64,000 nt of DNA from Catellatospora vulcania (GTDB lineage: Bacteria > Actinomycetota > Actinomycetes > Mycobacteriales > Micromonosporaceae): NCBI RefSeq assembly GCF_009720385.1, contig NZ_WARX01000014.1:62001-126000 (forward strand). The letters are read 5' to 3'. Shown here in pieces: positions 2,717 through 27,435 of this stretch. The notes under the pieces were generated by a model, which made no database searches, had not been told where the DNA came from, and saw only the letters and a list, made by a program, of their open reading frames with translations. Positions within the stretch are counted from its first letter, which is position 1, and each line of letters opens with the position of its first letter. The position numbers and the translations under genes were made by a program.

Positions 2717-2777
2717 ACAACTCTTAAAGACTTGCGGCCTCCGAGTGCTTCGGAGGCCGCAAGTCTTTAAGAGTTGT
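2717..2777. repeat. Palindromic element A1 (61 bp, 28-bp perfect arms)
   Basis: Arms 2717-2744 and 2750-2777 are perfectly complementary, with a 5-nt loop (GTGCT). The outer end reads ACAACTCTTAAAGACTTGCG. It lies between the convergent pepA and methyltransferase genes, 10 bp from the pepA stop and 8 bp from the methyltransferase stop. Two relatives of exactly 61 bp lie at 5301 and 27375. It can act as a bidirectional terminator, though no T-run follows the stem. Confidence 0.9.
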
Positions 2778-2785
2778 GAGGAGGG

Positions 2786-3400
2786 TCAGGCTTTGACGGC
2801 GGCGAGGAGGCCTTCGCCGAGGGGGAGCAGGGCGGGCTGCCAGAGGTCGCTGTCGCGGACGCCGTATGCCAGCTCGCGCACCGTGAAGACGTCGCGGCCG
2901 CTGGTCAGCACGCCGTGCAGGACGGCCACGCCGCCCGGCCGCAGCAGCCGCGCCGCGGCGTCCATGAACGCGGCGTACTCGGTCGGGTCGGCGTCGACGA
3001 AGATCAGGTCGTAGGCGCCGTCGGCGAGCCGGGGCAGCACCTCCAGGGCGCGGCCGGTGATGACCCGGGCCCGCGAGGCGGAAAAGCCGGCCTCCGTGAA
3101 CAGCCGTCGCGCCATGCGCTGGTGCTCGGACTCCCGGTCGATCGTGGTCAGCACGCCGTCGGCCCGCATGCCGCGCAGCAGCCACAGGCCGCTGACCCCG
3201 GTGCCGGTGCCGATCTCGACGACCGCCTTGGCGGCGCAGGCCCCGGCCAGCATGCGCAGTGCGGCCCCGACGGCCGGCGCCACCGGCTGCAGGCCCACTT
3301 CGACAGCCAGCCCGCGAGCCGTCTGCGCGATCACGTCCTCGGGGACGAACGACGCGATGAAGTCGCCTGCGCTACCTGGCTGGCGATGCAGCGTCGTCAT
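2786..3400 (-). CDS. O-methyltransferase, Methyltransf_3 family (Rv1220c-like)
   Basis: 204 residues. A class I SAM-dependent methyltransferase of the catechol/caffeoyl-CoA O-methyltransferase type. The SAM-binding glycine motif VEIGTGTGVSG is at residues 61-71, and FVDADPTEY (134-142) is the second motif with the metal/substrate Asp. The physiological substrate is unknown. It is divergent from the HtrA-like protease gene with an 80-bp gap. In M. tuberculosis the same gene (Rv1220c) is followed on the other strand by sigE-rseA-htrA-tatB; here sigE and rseA are absent. ATG at 3400 is the only good start. Confidence 0.88.
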   Translation of the reverse strand: MTTLHRQPGSAGDFIASFVPEDVIAQTARGLAVEVGLQPVAPAVGAALRMLAGACAAKAVVEIGTGTGVSGLWLLRGMRADGVLTTIDRESEHQRMARRLFTEAGFSASRARVITGRALEVLPRLADGAYDLIFVDADPTEYAAFMDAAARLLRPGGVAVLHGVLTSGRDVFTVRELAYGVRDSDLWQPALLPLGEGLLAAVKA

Positions 3401-3480
3401 GGGGCACCTTCCGTGAACAGTGATTTTTCACGTTGAAACCATGCCATCCTGAAACCGGGAACGGGACGGAGGGCTGGTCA

Positions 3481-4752
3481 GTGACCGACGGCTGGGGTTA
3501 TCGCCGGCCGGATGACGACGACTGGACGGCAACGCAGCAGACGCCGCCGGCCGTCGCACCGCCGGCGTCGTTTTGGTGGTCTGATGCGCTCAACGATCCG
3601 TGGCGCGATCCGCACTCGCCGGTGGCGCTCGTGCCACCCGCCGAGCGCGCGCACGCACCCGAGCCGGAGCCGTTGGCCGAGCCTGACCATACCCGACGGC
3701 GTACGTTGTGGACAGTCGCCGGAGCGGCCGTCCTGGCGGGCGTACTGGCCGGGGTGCTGGGCGGCGCGATGGGCGTGCGGTTCAGCGACGACCGCCAGAC
3801 GGCGCGCTCGCTGCTCGGCCCGACCGCCACCCCGCCTTATCGCGCCCCTGAGACGCTGGCCGCCGTGGCCAGCCTGCTGCTGCCCAGCGTGGTCACCGTC
3901 CGGGTGCCGGTGGACGGCAGCGTCTCGCTCGGCTCGGGCTTCGTGGCCAGCGCCGACGGCCACATCATCACCAACGACCACGTGGTCTCCGGCAGCACCG
4001 GAGTGGTGAGCGTCATATTCGACGACGGCACCAGCTCCCCGGCGAAGGTGATCGGCAGCGATCCCGAGTCGGACGTCGCGGTGCTCCAGGTCAAGCGTGG
4101 CGAGCTGCACCCGGCGATGCTGGGCGACTCCGACGCGGTCGCCGTCGGCGACTCGGTGGTGGCGATCGGCTCACCGCTGGCGCTGCGCGGCACCGTGACC
4201 GCGGGCATCGTCAGCGCGCTGGACCGGCCCATCGCCACGGACTCCGACAACGGCACGACCAGGTATTACGCCGCGATCCAGACCGACGCCGCGGTCAACC
4301 ACGGCAACTCGGGCGGCCCGCTGGTCGACGCCGCGGGCCAGGTGGTCGGGATCAACGCCGTGATCAAGTCGATGGCGAGCAGCGAAGAGTCGTCCGGCAA
4401 CATCGGCCTGGCCTTCGCCATCCCGATCAACCACGCCCGCCGGGTCGCCGAGGAGATCATCACCGCGGGCCGGGCACACCGTACGGTGATCGGGGCCGAG
4501 GTCGAGGAGTCGTTCCGTGGACCGGCCGGCGGGGTACGCCTGGGCGAGGTCGTGGCCACCGGTCCGGCCGCCGAGGCCGGCATGCGCACCGGTGACGTGG
4601 TGACCAGCTTCGACCGCCGGCCGCTCAGCGAGCCTACGGACCTCATCGCACTTGTGCGGAAAACTGCACCGGGTGAGGTGGTCGAAGTGACCTACAAACG
4701 GGGTTCTACCAGCCACAACGCTGCCGTGACACTCGTCGCTGACGCTGACTGA
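3481..4752 (+). CDS. Membrane-anchored HtrA/DegP-like serine protease with PDZ domain
   Basis: 423 residues from the GTG at 3481, preceded by GGACGGAGGG; a TTG at 3433 is possible but less likely. Residues 1-70 are polar and cytoplasmic, ~75-100 form one membrane helix (VAGAAVLAGVLAGVLGGAMGV). The trypsin-like domain has its catalytic triad at His167 (NDHVV), Asp198 (SDVAV) and Ser277 (GNSGG). A C-terminal PDZ domain runs from about 340 (ATGPAAEAGMRTGDVV). Such proteins degrade or refold misfolded envelope proteins. The order with tatB downstream (64 bp) matches Rv1223-Rv1224. A stress-sigma gene normally sits upstream but is missing here. Confidence 0.92.
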   Translation: MTDGWGYRRPDDDDWTATQQTPPAVAPPASFWWSDALNDPWRDPHSPVALVPPAERAHAPEPEPLAEPDHTRRRTLWTVAGAAVLAGVLAGVLGGAMGVRFSDDRQTARSLLGPTATPPYRAPETLAAVASLLLPSVVTVRVPVDGSVSLGSGFVASADGHIITNDHVVSGSTGVVSVIFDDGTSSPAKVIGSDPESDVAVLQVKRGELHPAMLGDSDAVAVGDSVVAIGSPLALRGTVTAGIVSALDRPIATDSDNGTTRYYAAIQTDAAVNHGNSGGPLVDAAGQVVGINAVIKSMASSEESSGNIGLAFAIPINHARRVAEEIITAGRAHRTVIGAEVEESFRGPAGGVRLGEVVATGPAAEAGMRTGDVVTSFDRRPLSEPTDLIALVRKTAPGEVVEVTYKRGSTSHNAAVTLVADAD

Positions 4753-4816
4753 GGGGTGGCCTGTCCGGCCTTCGCGCACGTACCCTTGCGACGGCGGACA
4801 CACTCAGGAGGCAGCG

Positions 4817-5233
4817 GTGTTGGACAACCTGAACAGCTGGGAGTTCATCGGGCTCCTGCTGATCGCACTGTTGATCTTCGGCGAGCGGCTGCCCAAGGTG
4901 ATCGGCGACGGCATGCGCATGCTGCGCGGCCTGCGCGCCATGGCCACCAACGCCACCGGTGACCTGAGCAAGGAGCTGGGCACCGACATCAAGCTCGAAG
5001 ACCTCAACCCCAAGGCGTTCGTACGCAAGCACCTGCTCAGCGAGGAGGACGAAGCCGCCCTCCGCAAGCCGCTGACCGGCATCTACGACGACCTCCGGGG
5101 CGAGCTGAACAACGCCGGCAAGCTGGCCGCCGAGACCAAGGCGAACGTCAACGCCATGGCCACCGCCACCCCCTCGTCGTCGTCCTCGACTCCCGCCGCC
5201 CCGGCCCCGGCCCGCTTCGACGACGCCACCTGA
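4817..5233 (+). CDS. tatB: Sec-independent translocase subunit TatB
   Basis: 138 residues with a GTG start preceded by CAGGAGGCAGC. A short periplasmic N-terminus leads into one membrane helix (EFIGLLLIALLIFGERLP) ending in the conserved FGERLPK hinge. An amphipathic helix (DGMRMLRGLRAM) and a charged cytoplasmic part follow, then a Ser/Ala/Pro tail typical of actinobacterial TatB. TatB with TatC binds twin-arginine signal peptides and exports folded proteins. tatA and tatC are not in the window. It follows the HtrA-like gene as in M. tuberculosis (Rv1223-Rv1224). Confidence 0.93.
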   Translation: MLDNLNSWEFIGLLLIALLIFGERLPKVIGDGMRMLRGLRAMATNATGDLSKELGTDIKLEDLNPKAFVRKHLLSEEDEAALRKPLTGIYDDLRGELNNAGKLAAETKANVNAMATATPSSSSSTPAAPAPARFDDAT

Positions 5234-5300
5234 CCCACCCGGCCCGCGCCGGCCCCGCGCCCCTGCCCGCCGCGCCGCGCGCCCCCCACGTCCCGCGTGC

Positions 5301-5361
5301 ACAACTCTTAAAGACTTGCGGCCTCAGAGTGCATCTGAGGCCGCAAGTCTTTAAGAGCTGT
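5301..5361. repeat. Palindromic element A2 (61 bp)
   Basis: Second copy of family A. Arms 5301-5328 and 5334-5361 pair with a single mismatch near the outer end (GAGCTGT against ACAACTC); the loop is GTGCA. It lies between convergent tatB and mrp. Compared with A1, the inner stem has CTCAGA/TCTGAG instead of CTCCGA/TCGGAG, so both arms changed together. Confidence 0.9.
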
Positions 5362-5418
5362 CGCAGCAGGGTGGGGTGGTCGCCCCTGGCCGGCCCGTCG
5401 GGGCGGAGGCCGTCCGGG

Positions 5419-6561
5419 TCAGCGCTTGGCGGGGGAGAGGCCCAGGGATTTGCCGACGAGGGACTCGCGGCGCTGGGCGAGGCGGTCGGCGATGGCGTTG
5501 AGGGCGGTTCCGGCGGGCGAGCCCGGCGTGGCCAGCACCGCCGGGGTGCCGTTGTCGCCGGCTTCCCGTACGCCGGTGTCCAGCGGGATCTGGCCCAGCA
5601 GCGGGACCGACGCGCCCGTGAGGCGGGTCAGCGAGTCGGCCACGGTCTGCCCGCCGCCCGCCCCGAAGACCTCCATGCGGGTGCCGTCGGGCAGCTCCAG
5701 CCAGGACATGTTCTCGATGACGCCGACCAGGCGCTGGTGGGTCTGCATGGAGATCGCGCCCGCGCGCTCGGCCACCTCGGCGGCCGCGGCCTGCGGGGTG
5801 GTGACGACCAGGATCTCGGCGGTCGGCAGCAGTTGGGCCAGCGAGATCGCGATGTCGCCGGTGCCCGGGGGCAGGTCGAGCAGCAGCACGTCCAGGTCGC
5901 CCCAGTACACGTCGGCGAGGAACTGCTGCAGGGCCCGGTGCAGCATCGGCCCGCGCCAGACGACGGCGGCGTTGCCGCTGGTGAACATGCCGATGGAGAT
6001 GACCTTCACGCCGTGTGCCTGCGGCGGCATGATCATGTCTTCGACCTGGGTGGGGCGGCCTTCGACGCCGAGCATCCGGGGCACCGAGTGGCCGTAGATG
6101 TCCGCGTCGACCACGCCGACCGACAGGCCCCGGGCGGCCAGCGCCGCGGCCAGGTTGACGGTGACGCTGGACTTGCCGACGCCGCCCTTGCCGGAGGCGA
6201 CGGCGTAGACGCGGGTGCGGCTGCCGGGCTGCGCGAACGGGATGACCGGCTCGGCCGCGGCGTTTCCGCGCAGCCGCTTCTGCAGGTCCTGGCGCTGGTC
6301 CGGGCTCATCACGCCGAAGTCGATCTCGACCGAGGTGACGCCCTCGACCGTGACGGCGGCGGCCGTGATGTCGGTGCGCAGGGTGTCCTTGAGCGGGCAA
6401 CCGGCGACGGTGAGCAGGATGCGGACGTACGCCACACCCGCGTCGACCTTCACCGACTCGACCATGCCGAGTTCCGTGATGGGACGCTTGATCTCCGGGT
6501 CGTTCACGGAGGCGAGTGCGGCCAGGACTGCCTGGTCGTCGGCGTGCACAGCGGTGGACAT
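5419..6561 (-). CDS. mrp: Mrp/NBP35 family P-loop ATPase, iron-sulfur carrier type
   Basis: 380 residues. The N-terminal DUF59/MIP18 domain (~1-100) is followed by the ParA/MinD-type ATPase domain with the deviant Walker A GKGGVGKSS at 124-132, and LLDLPPGTGD as the switch region. Mrp/ApbC proteins carry or transfer Fe-S clusters. The C-terminal CxxC cluster-bridging motif of ApbC/Nbp35 is absent; at that place the protein has ENMSWLELPDG, as in actinobacterial members, so its cluster chemistry may differ. It is the counterpart of Rv1229c in the same gene order. Convergent with tatB across A2. Confidence 0.92.
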   Translation of the reverse strand: MSTAVHADDQAVLAALASVNDPEIKRPITELGMVESVKVDAGVAYVRILLTVAGCPLKDTLRTDITAAAVTVEGVTSVEIDFGVMSPDQRQDLQKRLRGNAAAEPVIPFAQPGSRTRVYAVASGKGGVGKSSVTVNLAAALAARGLSVGVVDADIYGHSVPRMLGVEGRPTQVEDMIMPPQAHGVKVISIGMFTSGNAAVVWRGPMLHRALQQFLADVYWGDLDVLLLDLPPGTGDIAISLAQLLPTAEILVVTTPQAAAAEVAERAGAISMQTHQRLVGVIENMSWLELPDGTRMEVFGAGGGQTVADSLTRLTGASVPLLGQIPLDTGVREAGDNGTPAVLATPGSPAGTALNAIADRLAQRRESLVGKSLGLSPAKR

Positions 6562-6689
6562 GCGCCCATGCTACCCGCGGCATCGATCATGACCGGCCGA
6601 CGCGTGGGCCGGGTGGCACGCGCAACATTCTCGCAACCCGTTGCCCGCGTTCGCCCGATCGTGGGACCATCGAAGGAGCTTGCCGCGCG

Positions 6690-7220
6690 TCATGCCCCTT
6701 GCGACGCGCGGCTCTTCTTTTCCTTGCGGTCGGCCTTCTCCTGGTGGTGCCGCCGGGCCGCTGCGTCGTCCAGCTCCTCGGCCAGTTTGGCCAGCTCGGA
6801 GCGGATGTAGTCACGGGTGGCCACCTCGTTGAGCGCCATCCGCAGCGACGCGATCTCCCGGGCCAGGTACTCCGTGTCGGCCTTCTGGGCCTGGGCGCGG
6901 CGGCGGTCCTCGTCGATGGTCAGCCGGTCGCGGTCGGCCTGGCGGTTCTGGGCGAGCAGAATCAGCGGGGCGGCGTACGACGCCTGGGTGCTGAAGAACA
7001 GGTTGAGCAGGATGAACGGGTACGGATCCCACTGCAGCCCGAAGACGCCGATCAGGTTGATCAGAATCCAGACGATCACGAAGACCGTCATGTAGACGAG
7101 GAACCGCGCGGTGCCCATGAAGCGGGCGAACTTCTCCGCGAAGTTGCCGAACGCGTCGGGGTCCCACCGGGGCAGCCGGATGGCGTGCGGTTCCCGGGGC
7201 TGGTCGAGGCGGTCGCTCAT
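6690..7220 (-). CDS. DUF1003 family membrane protein
   Basis: 176 residues. Residues ~1-35 are polar, two membrane helices follow (FLVYMTVFVIVWILINLIGVF and ILLNLFFSTQASYAAPLILLA), with the conserved WDPYPFILLNL between them. A long charged helix, probably coiled coil (DRDRLTIDEDRRRAQAQKAD), ends the protein. This layout is that of DUF1003, of unknown function. It lies 25 bp downstream of the MgtE-N/CBS gene, so the two are likely co-transcribed, as in the Rv1230c-Rv1232c region of M. tuberculosis. Confidence 0.88.
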   Translation of the reverse strand: MSDRLDQPREPHAIRLPRWDPDAFGNFAEKFARFMGTARFLVYMTVFVIVWILINLIGVFGLQWDPYPFILLNLFFSTQASYAAPLILLAQNRQADRDRLTIDEDRRRAQAQKADTEYLAREIASLRMALNEVATRDYIRSELAKLAEELDDAAARRHHQEKADRKEKKSRASQGA

Positions 7221-7245
7221 CGGACCTCCTCCGGGCCGGGCGCGG

Positions 7246-8496
7246 TCATGGGGTGCGGTCCGTGGCGCGCTCCTGCTCCCGCCAGTCCCGCGGCAGCAGG
7301 TGGTCGAGCACGTCGTCCACGGTCACCGCGCCGACCAGCCGGTCGTTGGAGTCCACCACCGCGATCGCGACCAGGTTGTAGGTCGCCATCCGCCGGGTGA
7401 TGTCGGCCAGCGGCAGGCTCGGCGACAGCGGGGTGATGTCGCGCTCCAGCACTCCGCCGAGCAGGTCGCCGGGCGGCTCGCGCAGCAGCCGCTGGAAGTG
7501 CACCACGCCCAGGTACCGGCCGGTCGGCGTGTCGATCGGGGCGCGGCACACGAACACCTGCGCGGCCAGCGCCGGGGACAGGTTCTTCTCGCGGATGCGG
7601 GCCAGCGCGTCGGCGACGGTGGCGTCCGGGGTCAGGATCACCGGCTCGCTGGTCATCAGCGCGCCGGCGGTGTTCGGCCGGTACTGCATCAGGGCCCGCA
7701 CCGGGGCCGACTCCTCCGGCTCCATCAGGTCCAGCAGCAGCGCCCGCTCGGTGGGCGGCAGCTCGGCCAGCAGGTCGGCGGCGTCGTCGGCGTCCATCTC
7801 CTCCAGCACGTCGGCGGCCCGCTCGCGGTCCAGCCGGGCCAGGATGTCGACCTGGGCGTGTTCGGGCAGCTCCTCCAGCACGTCGGCCAGCCGCTCGTCG
7901 TCCAGCGCCGCGGCGACCGCGTGGCGGCGCTGGTCGGGCAGGTCCTGCAGCGCGTTGGCGAGGTCGGCCGGGCGCATCTTCTCCAGCACCGACAGCAGCG
8001 AGGCGGTGCCCTGCAGCGCACCGGCGTCGACGAGGCCGGTCAGCTCGTGCCACTCGAACTGGTGCAGCTGGCCGCGCCGGCTCAGCCGACTGGTGATGTC
8101 GCGTACGGCGACGCGGCCGAGGTTCCACTGCCCGGCCCGGTCGGACTCCATGGCGACGTCGACCACGGTGGCGGGGGTGCCGTTCGGGGTGGTGATGCGC
8201 CGGTCCAGCAGGTCCGCGAGCACCATCAGCTCGGCCGGGCCCTTCTGGAAGCGGCGCAGGTTGATGGTGCCCGAGCCGAGCACCACGCTGTCGGCGTCGA
8301 TGGAGGTGACCCGGGCGATCGGCAGGAAGATCTGCCGTCGCAGCGGCATCTCCGCGACCAGGCCGACGACCGACGGGGACCCGTCGGAGCGCAGCCGGGC
8401 GACGGCGTCACGCACCCGGCCCACCTGGTCGCCGTTCGGGTCGTAGACGGGCAGGCCTGCGAGCCGGGCGACGAAGACCCTGGTCAGCGTGGCCAT
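7246..8496 (-). CDS. MgtE N-domain and CBS-domain protein with PRC-barrel-like N-terminus (Rv1232c-like)
   Basis: 416 residues from the ATG at 8496. The N-terminal ~160 residues resemble two PRC-barrel-like repeats (VYDPNGDQVGRVRDAVARL). Residues ~170-265 are the MgtE intracellular N domain, a superhelix of repeats such as DERLADVLEELPEHAQVDIL. Two CBS domains follow (MTSEPVILTPDATVADAL... and ITPLSPSLPLADITRRM...VVDSNDRLVGAVTVDDVLDHLL). The five-helix membrane channel domain of true MgtE is missing, so this is not a magnesium channel by itself. It may sense Mg2+ or nucleotides. It is probably in an operon with the DUF1003 gene. Confidence 0.88.
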   Translation of the reverse strand: MATLTRVFVARLAGLPVYDPNGDQVGRVRDAVARLRSDGSPSVVGLVAEMPLRRQIFLPIARVTSIDADSVVLGSGTINLRRFQKGPAELMVLADLLDRRITTPNGTPATVVDVAMESDRAGQWNLGRVAVRDITSRLSRRGQLHQFEWHELTGLVDAGALQGTASLLSVLEKMRPADLANALQDLPDQRRHAVAAALDDERLADVLEELPEHAQVDILARLDRERAADVLEEMDADDAADLLAELPPTERALLLDLMEPEESAPVRALMQYRPNTAGALMTSEPVILTPDATVADALARIREKNLSPALAAQVFVCRAPIDTPTGRYLGVVHFQRLLREPPGDLLGGVLERDITPLSPSLPLADITRRMATYNLVAIAVVDSNDRLVGAVTVDDVLDHLLPRDWREQERATDRTP

Positions 8497-8533
8497 ATTC
8501 GCATGGTATGCGTATTTCTCACATGATTGGGAG

Positions 8534-9013
8534 TTATCGGCGTCGGACCCGGTGCAGGCGGAACGGCTTGCGGGTGGCGTTCGCCGCCGGGGTCGGCCGG
8601 GGCTCGGCCCGCCCCGAGTCCTCGCCCGCGGACGCCGGGTCGCCGGCCGGAACGAGCGCCACCAGGACACACTCCCGCCCCCAGCGCTCGGCGAGCGCCT
8701 CGGCAGTGCCGGGCGAGTTGAGCCGCTTGCCGGCCAGCGTCACCGCGACCGCGGTCCACTGCTCGCCACCAGGCTCAATCCGCTGCACCTGCGCCGGATA
8801 GGTCACCACCGCTCCGCCGTGATCCCCGCGCAGCGTCACCGTCGCCTCGGCGGCCTCGGCCAGCCCCGGCAGCGCCTGCTCGCCCGGCCCGACCACCACG
8901 TGCAGCCGCCCGTCCTGCGGCAGGCACCACACCGCGTACGCGGGCCCGCCCCCCACCGACACCCACGCCACAGCCGCCTTCTTAGCGGCCTCCTCCACCA
9001 ACGGATGCGTCAT
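8534..9013 (-). CDS. Conserved hypothetical protein, possibly split-barrel fold
   Basis: 159 residues from the ATG at 9013, chosen because GGGAGG sits 9 nt upstream; two upstream in-frame ATGs (9022, 9034) overlap that site. The protein starts MTHPLVEEAAKKAAVAWVSV and alternates strands and turns (VWCLPQDGRLHVVVGPGEQ, EATVTLRGDHGGAVVTYPAQV), resembling pyridoxamine-phosphate-oxidase-like split barrels. I see no clear flavin motif. The C-terminal 30 residues are polar. It is upstream of the MgtE-N/CBS gene (37 bp) and probably in the same transcript. Function unknown. Confidence 0.7.
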   Translation of the reverse strand: MTHPLVEEAAKKAAVAWVSVGGGPAYAVWCLPQDGRLHVVVGPGEQALPGLAEAAEATVTLRGDHGGAVVTYPAQVQRIEPGGEQWTAVAVTLAGKRLNSPGTAEALAERWGRECVLVALVPAGDPASAGEDSGRAEPRPTPAANATRKPFRLHRVRRR

Positions 9014-9033
9014 ACCGCCCATCCTCCCACCCA

Positions 9034-9086
9034 AAGGAAGGGCACCTTCACATCGCTATACGTAGAGCAAGGGCACCTTCTTAACG
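9034..9086. repeat. Palindromic element B1
   Basis: Family B copy. Two blocks GAAGGGCACCTTC and CAAGGGCACCTTC flank a core CGCTATACGTAG and end in TTAACG. Each block is itself a near palindrome (GAAGG-GCA-CCTTC). Here the blocks are direct repeats, unlike B2 and B4 where they are inverted. It lies just upstream of the start at 9013 and could affect its expression. Confidence 0.75.
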
Positions 9087-9166
9087 CCGCACCCACGGTG
9101 ACCTGCCCACTTCCGGGCCACCGCGACAGGAGCCGAGCCGACACCCCACCAAGTGGGGCTTCGGTC

Positions 9167-9230
9167 GTGCAGTTTCGGGGAAACTGCGCTCCGGATTCCG
9201 CCGATGGCGGCACTTTCCCCGAAACTGCAC
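9167..9230. repeat. Palindromic element E1 (64 bp, 17-bp arms)
   Basis: Arms GTGCAGTTTCGGGGAAA at 9167-9183 and its exact complement at 9214-9230. The interior holds a second weak pairing (TCCGCCGATGGCGGCA). It lies 15 bp downstream of the EamA gene stop (minus strand) and may serve as its terminator. It is the only copy of this family in the window. Confidence 0.8.
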
Positions 9231-9245
9231 GGGGTGTGTGGCGGG

Positions 9246-10178
9246 TCAGCGGCCGGTGGCGGGCAGGTCGACGTCCACCGGGTCGGGGGTGGGTAGGGCG
9301 GCGGGGCGGCGGGCACCGAGGATGACGGCGGCGACACCGGCCATGAGCAGGGCGATGCCGGGCCAGGCGGCGGCGGGCGGGGCCTGGCCCAGCCATACCC
9401 AGCCGAGCACGGCGGCACCGGGCACCTCCAGCAGGATCAGCACGCTGATCGTGGTGGCGGAGACCTTGTGCAGGGCGTAGTTGAACATCGAGTGCCCGAG
9501 CAGCTGCGCCCCGGCGGTCAGCGCGATGATGGCCAACCAGGTCCGGTCGTCGAAGCCGGTCATCTCCACGCCGAAGAGCAGGCACACGCCCAGCAGCAGC
9601 ACGGCGCAGACGGAGTAGCAGAGCGTCGTGTACGTCGTGGTCGAGGTCCGGCTGCGCGCCTTCTCGCCGAAGGACGTGTAGATCGCCGCGAGCAGGCCGC
9701 CGGCGACGGCCAGCAGGTCGCCGACGACCGCCGTACCCCCGCGGGTGAAGTCGGCGCCGGTCGCGATCGCCGCGCCCACCACGGCGCTGCCGATGCCGAT
9801 CCAGGTCCACCGGCCCAGCCGCCGCCCCTGCCAGAGCGCGATCAGCCCGGCCCAGACCGGCTGCGTGGCGACCAGCGCGGTGGCGGTGGCGACGGTGGTC
9901 ATCTTGACGCTGGGCACCCAGGTGGCGAAGTGCCCGGCCAGCGCGAGCCCGGCCAGCACGCTCCACCGCCAGGCGTGGCCCTCGCGCAGCCCGCGCAGCT
10001 CGGCCCGGCGGCGGGTGAGGGTGACCGGGGCGAGCACGCCGACCGCGAGGGCGTTGCGCCAGAAGGCGATGGCCAGCGCGGGCGCGGCGGCGTACGCGAT
10101 GAGCGGCCCGGACGACGACACGGCGACGATCGCGACCGTGATCGCGGCGATGGTGAGCGGGTCGAGCCGTGATCGCAT
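9246..10178 (-). CDS. EamA/DMT-family transporter
   Basis: 310 residues from the ATG at 10178. About ten hydrophobic segments form two EamA repeats, beginning LTIAAITVAIVAVSSSGPLIAY and ending PGIALLMAGVAAVILGAR, with the conserved FWRNALAVG near helix 2 and LEVPGAAVLGWVWLGQ in the second repeat. DMT transporters export or import small metabolites; the substrate cannot be predicted. The 129-bp AT-rich gap to the divergent HAD gene is the likely promoter region for both. Confidence 0.87.
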   Translation of the reverse strand: MRSRLDPLTIAAITVAIVAVSSSGPLIAYAAAPALAIAFWRNALAVGVLAPVTLTRRRAELRGLREGHAWRWSVLAGLALAGHFATWVPSVKMTTVATATALVATQPVWAGLIALWQGRRLGRWTWIGIGSAVVGAAIATGADFTRGGTAVVGDLLAVAGGLLAAIYTSFGEKARSRTSTTTYTTLCYSVCAVLLLGVCLLFGVEMTGFDDRTWLAIIALTAGAQLLGHSMFNYALHKVSATTISVLILLEVPGAAVLGWVWLGQAPPAAAWPGIALLMAGVAAVILGARRPAALPTPDPVDVDLPATGR

Positions 10179-10307
10179 GAAGCCCGATCCTGCCAGGCGC
10201 AGGTGAGCGGCCTGTCGGCGCGCTGACAAATACTAAATGCGTTCATCCGCACACTGTGCGCGATCATCCTATGTACTTCATGTGAGCGGCTGATTACTGT
10301 CGCACGA

Positions 10308-11033
10308 ATGGATTCAGAACCTTCGTTATCCGGCGTAATGCCGCGCGCGATCCTGTTCGACTTCTACGGCACGCTGACCTCGGCGTGCACCCGCGGACCG
10401 GCCCACGAACTGGCCCCCCGGCTGCTCGGCTGCGAGCCCGCCGAGTACTTCGCGGTGCTCAACACCTCCTTCTACCCCCGCTGCCGCGGCGCGTACGGCG
10501 ACGCCCTGGACACCATGCGCTGGGTCGCCGCCGAGCTGGGCGTACGCGTCACCCCCGCGCGGCTGCGCGCCGCCCAGGCGGCCCGGCTGACGGCCGTACG
10601 CGCCGACACGCACCTGCGGCCCGAGGCGGTGCCCACGCTGTGGCGGCTGCGCCGCGCGGGGGTACGCCTGGCCGTGGTCAGCGACTGCGCCTGGGAGCTG
10701 CCCGAGATCATGCGCTCGTTGCCGGTCTACCACCTGCTCGACGCGAAGATCTTCTCGGTGCAGGCCGGCTGCACCAAGCCGGACCCGCGGATCTACCTCG
10801 CCGCCTGCGAGCGGCTGAACGTCTCGCCCGAGGAGTGCGTCTTCGTCGGCGACGGCGGTTCCCGCGAGCTGACCGGCGCGCAGGCGCTCGGCATCCGCGC
10901 CATCCGGCTGGCCGCCCCGGACCTCGCCGACCACCTGCAGTTCGCCTCCGACGACGCTTTCACCGGCGAGTCCGCGCGCACCCTGCCCGACGCAGCCGCA
11001 CTCGCAATGACCCCCCAGCCCGTGGGGGTATGA
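10308..11033 (+). CDS. HAD-superfamily hydrolase
   Basis: 241 residues. Motif I is FDFYGTLT (residues ~15-22), with the nucleophile Asp but Tyr in place of the second Asp, as in haloacid-dehalogenase-like members rather than typical phosphatases. Motif II is VVSDCAW (~125), motif III is the Lys in CTKPDPRIY, and motif IV is FVGDGGSREL. The cap is of the small helical type. The substrate is unknown. Starts at 10308 and at 10338 (MPRAILFDFYG) are both possible; I list the longer. A GC-rich tandem repeat and element B2 follow. Confidence 0.85.
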   Translation: MDSEPSLSGVMPRAILFDFYGTLTSACTRGPAHELAPRLLGCEPAEYFAVLNTSFYPRCRGAYGDALDTMRWVAAELGVRVTPARLRAAQAARLTAVRADTHLRPEAVPTLWRLRRAGVRLAVVSDCAWELPEIMRSLPVYHLLDAKIFSVQAGCTKPDPRIYLAACERLNVSPEECVFVGDGGSRELTGAQALGIRAIRLAAPDLADHLQFASDDAFTGESARTLPDAAALAMTPQPVGV

Positions 11034-11036
11034 CCC

Positions 11037-11177
11037 CACCCCCGACCCCGCCCACCCCCGACCCCGCCCACCCCCGAGCCCGCCCACCCCCGCGCCCGCC
11101 CACCCCCGAGCCCGCCCACCCCCGCGCCCGCCCACCCCCCGCGCCCGCCCGCCCACCCCCCGCGCCCGCCCACCACG
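11037..11177. repeat. GC-rich short tandem repeat
   Basis: About nine imperfect units of roughly 15-16 bp built on CCCGCCCACCCCCG(A/C)G. They start immediately after the HAD gene stop and run towards element B2. One strand is almost free of G inside the units. The repeat is in a convergent intergenic gap and codes for nothing I can support. Confidence 0.8.
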
Positions 11178-11236
11178 AGGCTCGCCCACCACAAAGCAAG
11201 CCCGACCTGCCCCACCGCAGGTGGGCGCAGGTCGGG

Positions 11237-11289
11237 CGTTAAGAAGGGCACCTTCTGCAACGCATAGCGTTAAGAAGGTGCCCTTCCTT
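11237..11289. repeat. Palindromic element B2
   Basis: Family B in its symmetric form: GCGTTAAGAAGGGCACCTTC, a core CGCATAGCG, then AAGAAGGTGCCCTTCCTT, the second block being the complement of the first. It sits between the convergent HAD and SDR genes, 9 bp from the SDR stop. Confidence 0.85.
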
Positions 11290-11297
11290 CGGGCTGG

Positions 11298-12065
11298 TCA
11301 GCCCTGGCGTACGGATTGGCCGCCGTCGATTACGAGCATCTGGCCGGTTATGTAGCCGGCGGCGGGGGAGCAGAGGAAGGCGATGGTGGCGGCGACCTCG
11401 TCGGGGGTGCCGGGGCGGCCCATCGGCGTGTCGTAGCCGAGCTTGAGCTCGGCCAGGGTGGACGCCGAGGTGTGGATGGTGCCGGGGGCGACCGCGTTGA
11501 CGGTGATCCCGTCGGCGACCAGCTCCATCGCCAGCGCGCGGGTCAGGCCCAGCACGCCGGCCTTGGCGGCTGCGTAACCCGCCTCGGCGGGCAGCGCGTT
11601 CACCGGTCCGGCGGTGGCGGCGAGGTTGACGATGCGGCCCCAGCCACGCTCGGACATACCGCTCAGGAACGCCCGGCTGGACAGGAACGCCGTGGTCAGG
11701 TTCCGGTCGATCTCGGCTTTCCACTCCTCGAAGCTGAGCTGCGCCACCGGCCGGATCACCTCCGGGCTGGCCCGGCTGGTCAGGCCGGCGTTGTTGACCA
11801 GGATGTCGACGTCGCCCAGCTGCTCGGTGACCGCGTCGGCGAGCGCGCCGACCTCCGCCTCCAGGGTCAGGTCGGCGACGAAGCCGAGCACGCCCAGTTC
11901 GCCGGCGCGCTCGTGGATGCGCCGGGTGGTGGAGACGACGGCGACCTTCGCGCCGAGTGCGGCCAGCTGGCGAGCGGTGGCGAAGCCGATGCCGTGCGGG
12001 CTGCCGGCACCGGTGACGAGTGCGACCCGGCCGTCCAGCCGGAAGAGATCCATCCGCTCGTTCAT
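11298..12065 (-). CDS. SDR-family NAD(P)-dependent oxidoreductase
   Basis: 255 residues from the ATG at 12065 with AGGAT upstream. Cofactor motif [10 protein letters not shown] is at residues 18-27, NNAG follows, and the active-site YAAAK is in [18 protein letters not shown]. The residue 13 places before the Tyr, normally the catalytic Ser, is Thr in NLAATAG. The C-terminus ends [12 protein letters not shown], as in FabG-like reductases. The Thr substitution makes the standard Ser-Tyr-Lys mechanism uncertain. It lies alone between B2 and the DUF4190 gene; the substrate is unknown. Confidence 0.87.
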
Positions 12066-12154
12066 GGCTTGATCCTGCCGGTTTGTCCGAGCTGACGCCA
12101 GTAGGAGGCACCGCTTACTCTGTCGGGACCCCTTCACCGGATGGAGCCAGGCCG

Positions 12155-12835
12155 ATGACCGACCCCACCGCGCCGCCGCCTGCGAGCCCCGATCTCGGCA
12201 AGCCGCAGCCGGCGTTCCCGGAGCCGGTGCCGCTGACCTTCGGCTCGGCCGACCCCGTTCCGGCTGCTCCGGCACCCGTTTTCGGCAGCCCTGCCACGGA
12301 TCCGGCCGCGTCGGGCAGCCCGGCCGCGAGCCCCGCCGCGGTGCCGGGGCACTGGCCCAATCCGTACCAGGCGGCCGGTCCCCACCCCGCGAGCGGTCAC
12401 CCGACCGGCGGCTGGCCGCAGGCTGCCGGACAGCCGGCGCCGCCCGCAGGCCCGCCCGGTCAGCCGGGTCCTTACGGCGCCTACCCGCCGCCGGGCTACG
12501 GCCCGTACGGCCCGTACGGCTACGGCCACGTGCAGCGGCGCACCAACGGCATGGCCATCGGCGCGATGGTGACCGCGCTGGCCGGTGTGCTCCTGCTGTG
12601 CTTCTACGGCGTGCCCGCGCTCATCCTCGGCCCGCTCGGCGCGATCCTCGGGCACGTCGCCCGGCGCAAGATCCGCGAGAGCGGCGAGGACGGCGACGGC
12701 ATGGCCCTGACCGGCATCATCGTCGGCTGGATCGCCACCGCGCTGGCGGTCCTCGTCATCGCCGGATTCGTGGCGCTGATCGTCTTCCTGCCGGACAGCC
12801 CGGCCGGGCACTACGAGCCGCCGGGGGCCTTCTGA
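12155..12835 (+). CDS. DUF4190-domain membrane protein with proline-rich N-terminus
   Basis: 226 residues. Residues 1-125 are rich in Pro, Ala and Gly with a [11 protein letters not shown] run. Two membrane helices follow: [34 protein letters not shown] and [31 protein letters not shown], separated by [16 protein letters not shown]. This is the DUF4190 pattern (Gly-rich helix pair around RKI.....GRG). Function unknown; the long tail probably faces the cytoplasm. The ATG at 12155 is preceded by GGAGCCAGG. The methyltransferase gene follows after 33 bp on the same strand. Confidence 0.85.
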
Positions 12836-12868
12836 CCGGCTCCGCGGCCCATCGCGCATCCTTGACGT

Positions 12869-16214: not shown

Positions 16215-16257
16215 AACTTTCGTTTGATCCTGGCCTGCGAAAAGATTCCGGCCTGCG

Positions 16258-16306: not shown

Positions 16307-16316
16307 GACGTGAACG

Positions 16317-18065
<1,749 letters not shown>

Positions 18066-18361
18066 CAGGTTCTGGGGTGCCCTCTCAGTGATCCGCGTAC
18101 GGCGGACCCTGCGGGCTGCCCAGCGGATGTCGGTACGCCCGGTTCATCGAAGGGCGTATATGTAGTCTCGAGCGCGGGGCGCGGCGATGAAGGATGTGGA
18201 TCCCATCGCGCGGCGCGATCGTTGGGGACCGCGGCGCCGCACACGCGACGACATGGGCATCGGGCCCATGTCAACTCAGCCATCGTACGGCCCGGTGGCC
18301 GTCTGGTCACCTGGTGTGTGTCGAATTCCCGGTTCTTAGTGGGATTTCCCACGCAAAACGG

Positions 18362-19021
18362 TCAATTGTTGAGGCCGACCGCCGTCATCCGGGCGGTGTG
18401 TGCGGTCGTCAGCCGCCGGAACAGCACATCGACGGACCCGCCGTCGCCCACGCCCGCCAGCACCAGCGCCGCCAGCGGGGTGCGCTCCTGTGCCACCAGT
18501 TGCGCCTGTGACAGGGCCTCGCCGGTGAGCCGCCGCGCCCACATCGACAGCCGGTTGGCGACCTTCGGGTCGGCCGCGATCGCCGCGCGGATCTCGCCGG
18601 CCGCGAAGTCCGCGTAACTGTCGTCGTGCAGCACGTCCAGCACCAGCGCCCGGTCGGTGTCGGCCAGCACGCCCGCGGGCAGCACCTGCGCCACCTCGCG
18701 GAAGAAGTCGTCGGAGATGCCCTCGCCGACGTAGGCCTTGGTCAGCGCCTCCAGCCAGTCGCCCGGCTCGGTGTTGTCGTGGTACGCGCGCAGCGCCGTC
18801 ACGAACGGCAGCATCGCCTGCTCGGGGTCCGCGCCCAGCGCGGTGAGCCGGTTGGCCAGCCGCCGGTAGTTGGCCATCTCCCACGCCGCCATCTCGGCCA
18901 GCCGGGCCTGCCGGCCGAGGTCCGGGGCGAGCCGGGAATCGGCTGCCATGCGGTCGAAGGCCAGCAGCTCGCCGTAGGCGAGCATGCCCAGTAGATCGAT
19001 CACTCCGGCGTCAGCGGACAC
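18362..19021 (-). CDS. Ferritin-like-fold protein, MiaE_2 type (Rv3210c-like)
   Basis: 219 residues from a GTG at 19021. Helical, with YGELLAFDRMAADSRLAP (~17-34) and LAEMAAWEMANYRRL (~41-55) supplying Glu/His-type ligand candidates, and HDDSYADFAAGEIRAAI later. This is the actinobacterial family annotated as ferritin-like or MiaE-like hydroxylase. A true tRNA hydroxylase role is not shown. In M. tuberculosis the equivalent (Rv3210c) also lies next to the DEAD-box helicase. It is on the same strand as DUF3107 and the TetR gene. Confidence 0.82.
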   Translation of the reverse strand: MSADAGVIDLLGMLAYGELLAFDRMAADSRLAPDLGRQARLAEMAAWEMANYRRLANRLTALGADPEQAMLPFVTALRAYHDNTEPGDWLEALTKAYVGEGISDDFFREVAQVLPAGVLADTDRALVLDVLHDDSYADFAAGEIRAAIAADPKVANRLSMWARRLTGEALSQAQLVAQERTPLAALVLAGVGDGGSVDVLFRRLTTAHTARMTAVGLNN

Positions 19022-19072
19022 GCCCGCAGACTACCGGCCCGACACACCCTCGGCATCCGCCGGAAACGGCGG

Positions 19073-19103
19073 AACGGCACGGCGCAGGTTGCGCCGTGCC
19101 GTT
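19073..19103 (-). terminator. Terminator after the DUF3107 gene
   Basis: Perfect 13-bp stem AACGGCACGGCGC at 19073-19085 and its complement at 19091-19103, loop AGGTT. It lies 28 bp after the DUF3107 stop and 51 bp before the start of the ferritin-like gene, so it probably separates the two transcripts. There is no T-run. Confidence 0.7.
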
Positions 19104-19130
19104 CACCTGCAGTTATGTGCTGCGGCCGCG

Positions 19131-19358
19131 TCAGCGGGCCGAGAAGCCGACACTCCGCGTCGACGCCTCGGCGATCTCCACATATGCCAGCTTGTCCAGC
19201 GGGACGATGACCCGCCGGCCCTTCTCGTCTACCAGCGTCAGCAGCTGGGCCTTCGACGCAAGCGCGTCGGCGACCATCTGCTCGACCTCAGCGGGCGTCT
19301 GCGTGCTGTCCACCACCAACTCGCGGGGGGCGAACTGCACACCGATCTTGACCTCCAC
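19131..19358 (-). CDS. DUF3107 family protein (Rv3208A/TB9.4-like)
   Basis: 75 residues. The GTG at 19358 is chosen because AGGAGG sits 7 nt upstream; the longer frame lacks this. The sequence starts MEVKIGVQFAPRELVVDSTQ and ends AYVEIAEASTRSVGFSAR, the conserved DUF3107 ends. In M. tuberculosis the homologue is antigen TB9.4. Function is unknown. It follows the TetR gene by 71 bp and is probably co-transcribed with it, as in Rv3208-Rv3208A. Confidence 0.9.
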   Translation of the reverse strand: MEVKIGVQFAPRELVVDSTQTPAEVEQMVADALASKAQLLTLVDEKGRRVIVPLDKLAYVEIAEASTRSVGFSAR

Positions 19359-19429
19359 ACAACCTCCTCGGCTCGTCAGCGAGATTACCCCGCTGTCGCG
19401 TCCGGACGGCGCGCAAGCGCGCAACCGTG

Positions 19430-20083
19430 TCAGTGATCAGTTCCGCTGAGCGGGAAGCTGCTGATGCCGCGCCAGGAGAGAGTGGTGATGAGCTGTTCGG
19501 CCTCGTCCTGTGCGATGACCCGGCCGCCGGCCAGCCACCAGCGGGCCGAGACCTGCGCCGCGCCGCACAGGCCGGCCGCCAGCACCTCGGCGCGGGCCCG
19601 GCTGACGCCGGTGTCGGACATGATGGTCTCGGTGATGGCCTCGACGGACAGGCGCTCCATCCGGTCCACCCGCTCCGCGACCGCCGGGTCGTTGCGCAGG
19701 TCGGACTCGAACACCAGTCGGTAGGCCTCGCTCTCGTGCGAGACGAAGTCGAAGTAGGCCCGCATCGCGCCGCGGACCCGCTCCTTGTTGTCCGGGGTCG
19801 CCGCCATGGCGGAGCGGATGCGCTCGGCGAACGCGTCGCAGTGCGTGTCGAGAAGTGCCAGGTAGAGCTCGAGTTTGCCGGGGAAGTGCTGGTAGAGCAC
19901 CGGCTTCGACACGCCCGCCCGTTCGGCGATGTCATCCATCGCTGCGGAGTGGTAACCCTGGGCGACGAAGACGTCCTGAGCAGCGGCGAGCAGCTGCTTG
20001 CGTCGTGCCGACCGGGGCAGCCGGGTCGGCCGGCCCGTGGCTGGCAAGCCGGTCGGGTTGGCGCCACTGGTGGCCGCGGTCAT
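19430..20083 (-). CDS. TetR-family regulator, FasR (Rv3208)-like
   Basis: 217 residues from the ATG at 20083 with GAGGGAG upstream. The HTH is at ~25-75: RKQLLAAAQDVFVAQGYHSA, MDDIAERAGVSKPVLYQHF. The C-terminal domain includes FDFVSHESEAYRLVFESDL. Its neighbours (DUF3107, ferritin-like, DEAD helicase on one side; DUF3152 and MoeZ on the other) are those of Rv3208, FasR, which in mycobacteria activates the fatty acid synthase genes and senses long-chain acyl-CoA. Whether this protein has that role in a non-mycolate organism is inference. The 120-bp gap to the divergent gene probably holds promoters for both. Confidence 0.85.
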   Translation of the reverse strand: MTAATSGANPTGLPATGRPTRLPRSARRKQLLAAAQDVFVAQGYHSAAMDDIAERAGVSKPVLYQHFPGKLELYLALLDTHCDAFAERIRSAMAATPDNKERVRGAMRAYFDFVSHESEAYRLVFESDLRNDPAVAERVDRMERLSVEAITETIMSDTGVSRARAEVLAAGLCGAAQVSARWWLAGGRVIAQDEAEQLITTLSWRGISSFPLSGTDH

Positions 20084-26214: not shown

Positions 26215-26312
26215 GTCTCCGGACCCGGGCGGTGTGGCTGTCGGGTTTCCGGCTGTGACTTCGATCACCGTCCATGCGTGAGGTTCGTCTCGCGGTCCGC
26301 GCCCGGATGCGG

Positions 26313-26336
26313 AAAACGCCGCCGTACGGCGGTTTT
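26313..26336. terminator. Bidirectional terminator-like hairpin in the moeZ-26449 gap
   Basis: Stem CCGCC/GGCGG with loop GTAC, preceded by AAAACG and followed by TTTT. It can terminate in either direction. The rest of the 26215-26448 gap holds no gene; the stretch just before 26449 is the probable promoter region of the next gene. Confidence 0.5.
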
Positions 26337-26448
26337 GTAGGCCGTCACGGAGGCCTGAAACGGCTGTTTCCGAATTTATTTCACCCGCCAGTGCTGTTGA
26401 CCTTGGCCGACCTGATGAGGCCGGAGGGTCACCGGGCACGTACCCTCG

Positions 26449-27309
26449 ATGACCGTGGTGGATCTCGACGCGGCTATCGGTTTCGTGGTGAAGAAGGGCG
26501 ACCCGGTCGACCGGGCACGCCTGTCGTACCTGCGTACCGGCGTTACGCCGGCCGAGGAGATCCTCGCGGCGGCCGAGGCAGGACAGGCGGACGGCGGCGG
26601 CTGGTTCGCCACCCAGCGGGGCAAGATCCCTTCCGTCGACGTGACCTGCTTCCGGCTCGCCCAGCTCGACGACCTCGGCGCGCTCGGACGTCCCGGCGTC
26701 AAGCGGGCGTTCGACTGGCTGGCCGGTCGCCAGGCCGCCGACGGCAGCTGGCAGGAGGCCAAGGAGCTGGCCGTCGACGCCCCCGAGTGGGCGCAGCCCG
26801 GCGACCCCGAGGCGACGCTCTACCTGACCGCGAACGCCACGTTCTGGCTCACCGTGATGGGGCTCGACGTGCGCTCGTCGCTGCCGTACGGCGACCCGAC
26901 GCCGATCCCGTACGCAGATGCGGCCCTGCGCGGCGCGGAGTTCATCAAGAACAGCCTCAACTCGGACGGCACCTGGCCGTCGTACCTGGTCACCGGCTGG
27001 CTGGGCGCGGCGGTGATGTACCGGCAGGACATGTTCTACGAGGCCGCGCGTATGCAGGCGGTGCTGGGCGAGCGCCTGCCCGCGATGGCCCCGGCCGACG
27101 CCGCCGCGATGGCGGCCACGATGCGCCGGGTCGGCGTGTCGGCCGACGACTGGACGATGATCGCCGCGAAGCGCCGCCTGGCGGAGACCCAGCGCACCGA
27201 CGGCGGCTGGGAGTCCGAGGACGGCGAGACCTTCGACGTCCACCTGACCCTCAACGTCATCCGGGCGCTGTACGAGGTCACCCCACCCGGCCAGTCCAGC
27301 CTCCTCTGA
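26449..27309 (+). CDS. Prenyltransferase/squalene-cyclase-type repeat protein
   Basis: 286 residues. The protein shows four repeats with the DG.W signature of alpha/alpha barrels: ADGGGWFATQ, ADGSWQEAK, SDGTWPSYL and TDGGWESED. These QW-like repeats are found in terpene cyclases and protein prenyltransferase subunits. There is no DXDD or DDxxD motif of a cyclase, so it may be a non-catalytic repeat protein. The ATG at 26449 lies at the beginning of MTVVDLDAAIGFVVKKGDPV. It is convergent with proA across A3. The function is unknown. Confidence 0.8.
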   Translation: MTVVDLDAAIGFVVKKGDPVDRARLSYLRTGVTPAEEILAAAEAGQADGGGWFATQRGKIPSVDVTCFRLAQLDDLGALGRPGVKRAFDWLAGRQAADGSWQEAKELAVDAPEWAQPGDPEATLYLTANATFWLTVMGLDVRSSLPYGDPTPIPYADAALRGAEFIKNSLNSDGTWPSYLVTGWLGAAVMYRQDMFYEAARMQAVLGERLPAMAPADAAAMAATMRRVGVSADDWTMIAAKRRLAETQRTDGGWESEDGETFDVHLTLNVIRALYEVTPPGQSSLL

Positions 27310-27374
27310 CCCACCCACCCCCGGGGCCTTGCCGCCCGCCCGCCCGCCGGCCTGCGGCCTGCCACCCACTTGCG

Positions 27375-27435
27375 ACAACTCTTAAAAACTTGCGGCCTCA
27401 GAAGCGTTCTGAGGCCGCAAGTTTTTAAGAGTTGT
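27375..27435. repeat. Palindromic element A3 (61 bp)
   Basis: Third family A copy, 29-bp arms with loop GCG and no mismatch. Both arms carry an A-T for G-C exchange compared with A1/A2 (CTTAAAAACTTG against CTTAAAGACTTG, and its partner CAAGTTTTTAAG), so the pairing was preserved. It is between convergent genes (26449 gene and proA), followed by a (GGGTC)n run at 27471-27500. Confidence 0.92.

What the first reader, a model, noticed from the sequence alone, without database searches (positions are those of the whole stretch)
2717..27435. Family A: three 61-bp palindromes with compensatory changes in both arms
Copies at 2717-2777, 5301-5361 and 27375-27435 are each exactly 61 bp with 28-29-bp arms, always between the stop codons of two convergent genes. 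Base differences between copies occur in pairs: CTCCGA/TCGGAG becomes CTCAGA/TCTGAG, and AAAGACTT/AAGTCTTT becomes AAAAACTT/AAGTTTTT. Paired change means either selection for the hairpin or arm-to-arm gene conversion. They may be a dedicated bidirectional terminator or a REP-like mobile palindrome.
Basis: seen in the sequence. Interest (0 to 1): 0.7.

Follow-up and report, generated by a model that had tools for sequence, protein, structure and literature searches.

The report
Copying hairpins at bacterial gene ends
A soil bacterium carries some ninety or more near-identical 61-letter DNA hairpins, mostly where two genes end face to face; they are kept by selection, look suited to stop transcription from both sides, and a few have recently been copied to new places although the enzyme known to move such repeats was not found.

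Summary
The window is from Catellatospora. In the 643 kb of its genome that I held there are 91 such elements, 87 exactly 61 bp. The outer 14-21 bp are near-invariant, the centre variable. 56 of 91 lie between convergent genes, which offer 16% of the intergenic space; none lie inside genes. Between two species at least 19 of 28 element sites are shared, and compensatory double changes run about sevenfold above expectation, so the hairpin is maintained. One-sided changes are still commoner than paired ones, and in one subclass centre pairing is at chance. The elements also copy: window copy 1 is an exact inverted 61/61 duplicate of another site with unrelated flanks; at its junction four sister species carry a different palindrome family. 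The architecture matches REPINs (inverted doublets of conserved ends), but the RAYT transposase was not found in this genome and GTAG/CGTC tags are absent. Best reading: REPIN-like copying palindromes retained as bidirectional, actinobacterial-type intrinsic terminators. Termination is inferred; I had no RNA data. The copying agent is unknown.

The parts
2717..2777 (.). Family A element 1, 61 bp, 28-bp perfect stem, 5-nt loop; exact inverted duplicate of G000:C8:328232-328292
5301..5361 (.). Family A element 2, 61 bp, one unpaired position (5304/5358)
27375..27435 (.). Family A element 3, 61 bp, 29-bp perfect stem, paired G-C to A-T change in both arms
2717..2735 (+). Left arm of element 1; the 19-bp arm is itself an imperfect dyad (GCAACTCTT-A-AAGACTTGC type)
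2759..2777 (-). Right arm of element 1; arm centres 42 bp apart, as in the 87 of 91 elements that are 61 bp long
1309..2706 (+). Gene ending 10 bp before element 1 (own gene model)
2786..3400 (-). Convergent gene ending 8 bp after element 1
4817..5233 (+). Gene ending 67 bp before element 2
5419..6561 (-). Convergent gene ending 57 bp after element 2
26449..27309 (+). Gene ending 65 bp before element 3
27538..28782 (-). Convergent gene ending 102 bp after element 3

Best explanation
Family A is a REPIN-like copying palindrome that the host keeps at gene 3' ends as a bidirectional intrinsic terminator of the actinobacterial, U-poor type. Shown: long hairpin on both strands; near-invariant AT-richer arms around a GC-rich variable centre; near-constant 61-bp length; placement just after stop codons; compensatory evolution at orthologous sites; verbatim copies of the 61-bp unit at unrelated loci; exchange with unrelated palindrome families at the same junction. 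Inferred: as RNA polymerase arrives from either side, the GC-rich inner stem folds in the RNA exit channel while the 8 nt that follow (AAGUCUUU or GACUCUUU, about 4 U) give a weak hybrid, so the transcript is released and no antisense RNA runs into the facing gene; the outer arms then pair and protect the 3' end. Unknown: the agent that copies the unit.
For: Copy number and control: arm pattern with up to 2 mismatches, 122 forward + 123 reverse hits against 0/0 for the reversed pattern (arms are near-dyads, so hits exceed elements); 91 elements, 87 of 61 bp. Location: 56 of 91 convergent, 33 tandem, 2 divergent, 0 inside genes; convergent space is 16.3%; in tandem junctions 29 of 33 are nearer the upstream stop; median 36 bp from stops in convergent ones. 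Second species G003: 20 of 28 convergent, 0 divergent, 0 inside, against 25 of 222 other junctions convergent. Maintenance: 19 of 28 G003 elements share both flanks with an own element; at 18 of these sites arms are 93% identical but the 20 bp on either side only 67% (57% between non-orthologous sites), centre 70%; 12 compensatory pairs against 1.74 expected; native folds beat half-swapped chimeras, p 4e-8 (84 copies). Terminator features: 3 or more U in the 8 nt after the inner stem on both strands in 85 of 87; full-length MFE at or below -23 on both strands in 82 of 87, the thresholds used for Streptomyces Term-seq ends in PMC8269248 (passages); 3-4 U in 10 nt is the Streptomyces range in PMC12207403 (passages). 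Functional equivalence: convergent junctions without family A carry other strong stems in 16 of 36 (one of these is an assembly-gap artefact), against 3 of 95 divergent; at orthologous junctions different palindrome families stand in for each other. Copying: 2 fully identical pairs with unrelated flanks, 0 of 200 simulations.
Against: No RNA 3'-end data. Arms are more conserved in sequence than a terminator needs, and length is nearly fixed. In the 38 of 84 copies with G at position 15, centre pairing is at chance. At the junctions of copies 1 and 3 several species have short gaps without such a palindrome, so it is dispensable there. Five or more T in any 8-mer of the + strand 3' arm in only 5 of 87. 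PMC12207403 reports that A-tracts, the mark of bidirectional terminators, are virtually absent in Streptomyces (passage). Convergent placement could partly be purging of selfish copies from promoters; REPs elsewhere also sit mostly in convergent and tandem junctions (PMC3733652, passages).
Confidence: 0.58

Rival explanations
1. Purely selfish REPIN-like element: copied by an unknown enzyme that recognises the conserved ends, surviving between convergent genes only because insertions elsewhere are harmful. No host function.
For: Identical copies at unrelated loci; clade-limited expansion: 6 of 11 genus genomes rich, G002 with 10 and G007 with 11 mostly degraded places, G008 one weak, G005 and G009 none (150 of about 4000 first-look candidates scored each); in another genus (G019) about 580 dyads, some read in frame inside NRPS and UbiA-family genes. 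REPIN ends are invariant and spacers length-constrained with compensatory changes in Pseudomonas (PMC3116915, passages). Five of the six rich Catellatospora, though not the own genome, have a Y1 transposase match.
Against: Copies shared by two species keep 93% identical arms while the adjoining 20 bp have fallen to 67%; unrelated palindrome families occupy the same kind of junction; almost no unpaired arms (4 hits at 2 places).
Confidence: 0.22
2. Double operator: each 19-bp arm is a dyad bound by a dimeric protein, the two sites four helical turns apart; the bound protein blocks RNA polymerase from both sides or loads a chromosome-organising factor.
For: Arms are imperfect dyads; 61-bp elements (87 of 91 own) put arm centres 42 bp apart, as do 26 of 28 in G003; one three-arm array at C1:238679 with the same 42-bp period.
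Against: In G019 the dyads occur singly (30 of 54 clusters) or 30-123 bp apart with no single spacing; there the centre bases of close doublets are complementary in 17 of 21, and compensatory changes occur in Catellatospora, both implying a hairpin; only 2 of 91 own elements in divergent junctions; no candidate protein identified.
Confidence: 0.13
3. Arm-to-arm template switching (quasi-palindrome correction) alone makes the paired changes; the hairpin itself is not selected.
For: In 18 orthologous pairs the centre fits better inverted in 7, same in 8, tie in 3; foreign or repeat DNA joins inside the left arm in two species.
Against: Does not explain placement at gene ends, near-fixed length, invariant arms, or replacement by other palindromes at the same junction.
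Confidence: 0.07

Closest known systems
REPINs (REP doublets forming hairpins; PMC3116915, passages read)
   Same: Two invariant ends in inverted orientation, each overlapping a palindrome, poorly conserved spacer of constrained length with compensatory changes, extragenic, verbatim copies; clade-limited here
   Different: No PF01797 match in the own genome or G019 and no family A arm near the nine matched loci of relatives; no GTAG or CGTC tag; placement far from random in extragenic space, whereas REPIN doublets in P. fluorescens SBW25 are described as randomly distributed there
Streptomyces-type intrinsic and bidirectional terminators (PMC8269248, PMC12207403, passages read)
   Same: Very stable GC-rich hairpin, 3-4 U after the stem, symmetric for both strands, just after stop codons
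   Different: Dispersed copies share the same arm sequence and nearly the same length, and copy between loci; AT-richer tract on both sides, while A-tracts are said to be virtually absent in Streptomyces
REP families with in-gene copies and Rickettsia palindromic elements (PMC3733652, passages read; in-frame insertion of the latter recalled)
   Same: Mostly convergent and tandem junctions; G019 relatives sit in frame inside genes
   Different: No in-gene copies in the Catellatospora DNA examined; no GTAG or CGTC tag
TRIT terminators of Mycobacterium tuberculosis (recalled from memory; searches did not list the original paper)
   Same: Repeated terminator with conserved sequence in an actinobacterium, as recalled
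   Different: Could not be compared here

Membership tests
REPIN / REP | Inverted doublet of conserved palindromic ends with variable hairpin-forming spacer | tested here: met
   comparison text
REPIN / REP | Extragenic, downstream of genes | tested here: met
   0 of 91 inside genes, 2 of 91 divergent
REPIN / REP | Copies as a unit within the genome | tested here: met
   two identical pairs with unrelated flanks, 0 of 200 simulations
REPIN / REP | GTAG (or CGTC) tag at one end | tested here: not met
   of 182 ends with 10 bp outside and 8 inside: CGTC 7, CTAC 4, GACG 1, GTAG 0
REPIN / REP | Associated RAYT Y1 transposase | tested here: not met
   PF01797: no match in the own genome (99.8% complete) or G019; matches in 6 of 14 genomes searched (G001, G003, G004, G006, G007, G010), i.e. 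in all five other rich Catellatospora, of which G003 and G006 carry an internal stop and G010 partial matches; no family A arm within about 1.5 kb of the nine matched loci
Intrinsic terminator, actinobacterial type | Stable hairpin at gene 3' end | tested here: met
   MFE at or below -23 on both strands in 82 of 87; median 36 bp from stops in convergent junctions
Intrinsic terminator, actinobacterial type | Three or more U in 8 nt after the stem | tested here: met
   85 of 87 on both strands, if the inner stem is taken to end at position 44; the outer arms can pair further
Intrinsic terminator, classical | T-rich run, 5 or more T in 8 | tested here: not met
   5 of 87 on the + strand; scan of window 1-20000 did not flag elements 1 and 2
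Intrinsic terminator | RNA 3' ends map to it | not testable with these tools
   no transcriptome available
DNA uptake sequence forming terminators | Many single copies outside inverted pairs | tested here: not met
   unpaired arms at 2 places in 643 kb
MITE of a known IS | Transposase gene flanked by the same ends, target duplications | tested here: inconclusive
   no unpaired arms flanking a gene in the DNA held; flanks too diverged to see duplications
Transcription-factor operator | Located in promoters | tested here: not met
   2 of 91 in divergent junctions
Rfam families | Match at gathering score | tested here: not met
   window gives only four tRNAs

The most novel reading that the evidence does not exclude
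Catellatospora carries a set of interchangeable, self-copying terminators: several unrelated long-palindrome families compete for the same convergent gene junctions, replace each other between sister species, and are propagated as exact units by an enzyme other than RAYT, so that transcription termination sites behave as a mobile, domesticated population.
Probability: 0.35. Interest if true: 0.8.

Novelty: new variant of a known kind. Interest (0 to 1): 0.57.

Why it matters
REPINs are known with their RAYT enzyme; here is the same architecture with strong placement at gene ends and no RAYT found in the own genome, in an actinobacterium. In the listings that I saw (9 papers, none using the word Actinobacteria; 10 of 3,188 shown; 6 of 2,749 shown) I met no report of such elements in Catellatospora; that is a weak absence. 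The exchange of unrelated palindromes at one junction gives a direct way to ask whether mobile palindromes are recruited as bidirectional terminators, and could explain how a high-GC actinobacterium insulates convergent genes with few U-tracts.

Tried and rejected
RAYT link: no PF01797 match in own or G019. This is not clean: all five other rich Catellatospora have a match; but no family A arm lies near the nine matched loci. So REPIN membership is not claimed. A strand bias suspected in the capped G019 hit list did not hold once the DNA was read. Autoregulated repressor: the two own divergent elements lie beside sugar-transport and galactosidase-like, and oxidoreductase and glutamine-synthetase-like genes; the two in G019 lie beside a LuxR-type regulator-like and a sigma-factor-like gene (read by eye); no gene recurs. 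DNA uptake sequence: too few single copies. IS ends: no flanked transposase seen. Papers: (2 papers, listing only, not relevant); searches listed nothing on Catellatospora palindromes; the M. tuberculosis TRIT paper was not listed. My notebook says 20 of 28 shared sites; recounting one search gives 19 of 28 (29 rows printed, one a stray third arm dropped), which is what I report.
Full report
WHAT IS THERE. The three palindromes exist as described and fold into near-perfect hairpins on both strands, -47.4 to -52.5 kcal/mol, 0 of 200 shuffles as stable. One correction: copy 2 carries an unpaired base in its outer arm (A5304 against C5358). The window is G000:C8:62001-126000 of an 8.83-Mb genome.

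GENOME-WIDE FAMILY. An arm pattern with up to 2 mismatches gives 122 + 123 hits against 0/0 for the reversed pattern; arms are near-dyads and can be hit on both strands, so this is not a count of elements. A covariance model built from 21 copies gives 150 matches, both strands, in the 150 of 4597 first-look candidates that were scored, all at E of 1.7e-8 or better. In 643 kb of own DNA fetched around hits plus the window I find 91 elements: 87 of 61 bp, 3 of 60, 1 of 62. One three-arm array (C1:238679-238781, the same 42-bp period) counts twice, and three elements have 5 mismatches to the arm cores. Positions 1-14 (GCAACTCTTAAAGA) are near-invariant. Each 19-bp arm is itself an imperfect dyad, and the two dyads are centred 42 bp apart. 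Unpaired arms (up to 2 mismatches of 14) give 4 hits at 2 places. The 91 come from stretches chosen because they hold hits, so they are not a random sample.

PAIRING. Across the 87 copies of 61 bp, pairing clearly exceeds independence at positions 15, 17, 21, 26 and 28 (also 1, 10 and 16) but by less than 2 at 22, 23, 25 and 27, and by 3 or less at 24, 29 and 30. Native copies fold better than half-swapped chimeras (mean -42.5 against -36.8 kcal/mol, p 4e-8, 84 copies). The effect sits in the 45 copies with C at position 15 (pairs at 22-28: 5.2 against 4.4); the 38 with G at 15 show none (3.66 against 3.84). The sharper test uses orthologous sites. Of 28 elements in 20 fetched G003 stretches, 19 have both flanks matching the flanks of one own element (the other 9 may still have own partners in DNA that I did not hold). 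For the 18 ungapped pairs, positions 1-26 show 12 compensatory double changes against a shuffled mean of 1.74 (0 of 5000), 7 other double changes and 38 one-sided changes, of which 17 keep a Watson-Crick or G-U pair. The excess lies in positions 1-21; in 22-26 (358 of 5000) and 27-30 (1422 of 5000) it is not significant. Arms are 93% identical between these orthologues, centres 70%, the 20 bp on either side 67%, against 57% for non-orthologous flanks. So the arms and the hairpin are maintained, but most changes are not paired.

LOCATION. With a codon-based gene model trained on the same DNA, 56 of 91 elements lie between convergent genes, 33 in tandem junctions, 2 in divergent ones, none inside a gene; among 445 junctions without an element 53 are convergent (Fisher p 3e-22). 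Convergent junctions make up 16.3% of element-free intergenic space. In tandem junctions 29 of 33 are nearer the upstream stop (medians 43 and 124 bp). G003 agrees: 20 of 28 convergent, none divergent or inside. In G019 25 of 54 clusters are convergent, 21 tandem, 2 divergent, 5 inside genes, 1 at an edge.

TERMINATOR FEATURES. The GC-rich centre is flanked by AT-richer arms (55% against 26% A+T). In the 8 nt after the inner stem 85 of 87 copies have 3 or more U on both strands, and 82 of 87 fold at or below -23 kcal/mol on both strands. These are the cut-offs used for structured U-rich 3' ends in S. clavuligerus (PMC8269248, passages); 3-4 U in 10 nt is the range in Streptomyces (PMC12207403, passages), though the same paper finds A-tracts virtually absent there. 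By the classical criterion of 5 T in 8 only 5 of 87 pass, and the simple scan missed elements 1 and 2. Compensatory evolution, and stronger constraint in bidirectional terminators, are known in Bacillus cereus (PMC5381666, passages), and inverted repeats concentrate after stop codons in E. coli, most of the longer ones as parts of intrinsic terminators (PMC6060812, passages).

COPYING AND TURNOVER. Window copy 1 is identical over 61 of 61 bases, inverted, to C8:328232, with flanks matching in 14 of 40 on each side; C3:54940 and C18:71163 are also identical, flanks 18 and 16 of 40. Dealing centre columns at random gives no identical pair in 200 simulations; 9 pairs lie within 3 differences against 0.3 expected. 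The C8:328232 site is shared with G003, while at the junction of copy 1 G001, G003, G004 and G010 carry another palindrome (TGGCCTATC family), G002 and G007 two others, G006, G005, G008 and G009 gaps of 25 bp or less. On an unrooted three-gene tree the six rich species stand apart from the other five (support 100; order inside weakly supported, 70-96), so I read copy 1 as a recent arrival in the own lineage. At the copy 2 junction family A is in own, G001 and G004 (left arm cut); G003 and G010 have another palindrome plus a T-tailed stem; G002 and G007 a third family; G005 and G008 other inverted repeats; G006 a 52-bp gap whose own ends form an inverted repeat; G009 a 65-bp gap (by eye). At the copy 3 junction own, G006 and G001 are filled; the other eight genus genomes and G019 are not. 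Convergent junctions without family A hold other strong stems in 16 of 36 (one a run-of-N artefact), against 11 of 106 and 14 of 72 tandem and 3 of 95 divergent.

DISTRIBUTION. Strict dyads occur in 7 of 354 family genomes: six Catellatospora and G019, another genus with about 580 (583 forward, 580 reverse of a near-palindromic pattern). Of 397 genomes drawn across the order only the own one matches a perfect dyad; that sample held neither G019 nor other Catellatospora. A W-centred perfect dyad in the genome-contig collection hits 17 Catellatospora stretches and one lone metagenome record (the own genome may be left out there, and the G019 form was not covered). With the covariance model G002 shows 10 places and G007 11, mostly degraded, G008 one weak, G005 and G009 none. 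In G019 the core is CAACTCTT-S-AAGAGTTG, single in 30 of 54 clusters or paired at variable distance; centre bases of close doublets are complementary in 17 of 21. Of six G019 places read in all frames, five lie in a recognisable coding frame and all five read NSSRV: four in an NRPS region (condensation and AMP-binding domains; one of the four lies outside a called gene and is read by eye) and one in a UbiA-family gene. This argues for mobility there.

IDENTITY. The design is that of REPINs (PMC3116915, passages), and placement in convergent and tandem junctions is also reported for REPs (PMC3733652, passages). But the tag is missing and no Y1 transposase is found in own or G019. Against this, Y1 genes occur in all five other rich Catellatospora and in G007, none in G002, G005, G008 or G009; those of G003 and G006 have an internal stop, G010's are partial, and no family A arm lies near any of the nine loci. 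I therefore call it REPIN-like, not a REPIN. Whether it terminates transcription is inferred. The strongest counter-reading is a selfish element surviving where it does least harm; the conservation of arms at shared sites and the stand-in by unrelated palindromes speak against that being the whole story.

Noticed in passing
window 48585-48645 and 62582-62646: Second long-palindrome family (GATCGCTGTTT...AAACAGCGATC), several copies elsewhere in the genome, mixed junction types
   Followed up: partly
window 9166-9231: Palindrome family with arms CAGTTTCGGGGAAA / TTTCCCCGAAACTG; six copies in the own DNA held
   Followed up: partly
window about 9037, 11243 and 62520: GAAGGGCACCTTC/GAAGGTGCCCTTC hairpins, a further repeated family, mostly at gene ends
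   Followed up: partly
window about 14135: GCCAGGCAAGTC palindrome between convergent genes; the same family stands at the copy 2 junction in G002 and G007
   Followed up: partly
window 51159-51199 and 16259-16306: Stem plus T-tail terminators of ordinary type, the first right after a tRNA, whose AAAGAG/CTCTTT ends resemble the family A arms
   Followed up: no
G000:C1:238679-238781: Three family A arms in a row at an exact 42-bp period
   Followed up: no
L161 (G001) and L244 (G004): At two orthologous sites the left arm is truncated where foreign or tandem-repeat DNA joins, as if the hairpin were a breakage point
   Followed up: no
L144 and L154 (G019): Related dyads sit in frame inside NRPS and UbiA-family genes; the five readable ones all give NSSRV
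   Followed up: partly
orthologous copies: In some element pairs between species the centre matches better in inverted orientation (7 of 18), hinting at centre flipping
   Followed up: partly
G001, G003, G004, G006, G007, G010: IS200-like Y1 transposase genes, some with an internal stop or partial, in the five other rich Catellatospora and G007 but not in the own genome
   Followed up: partly
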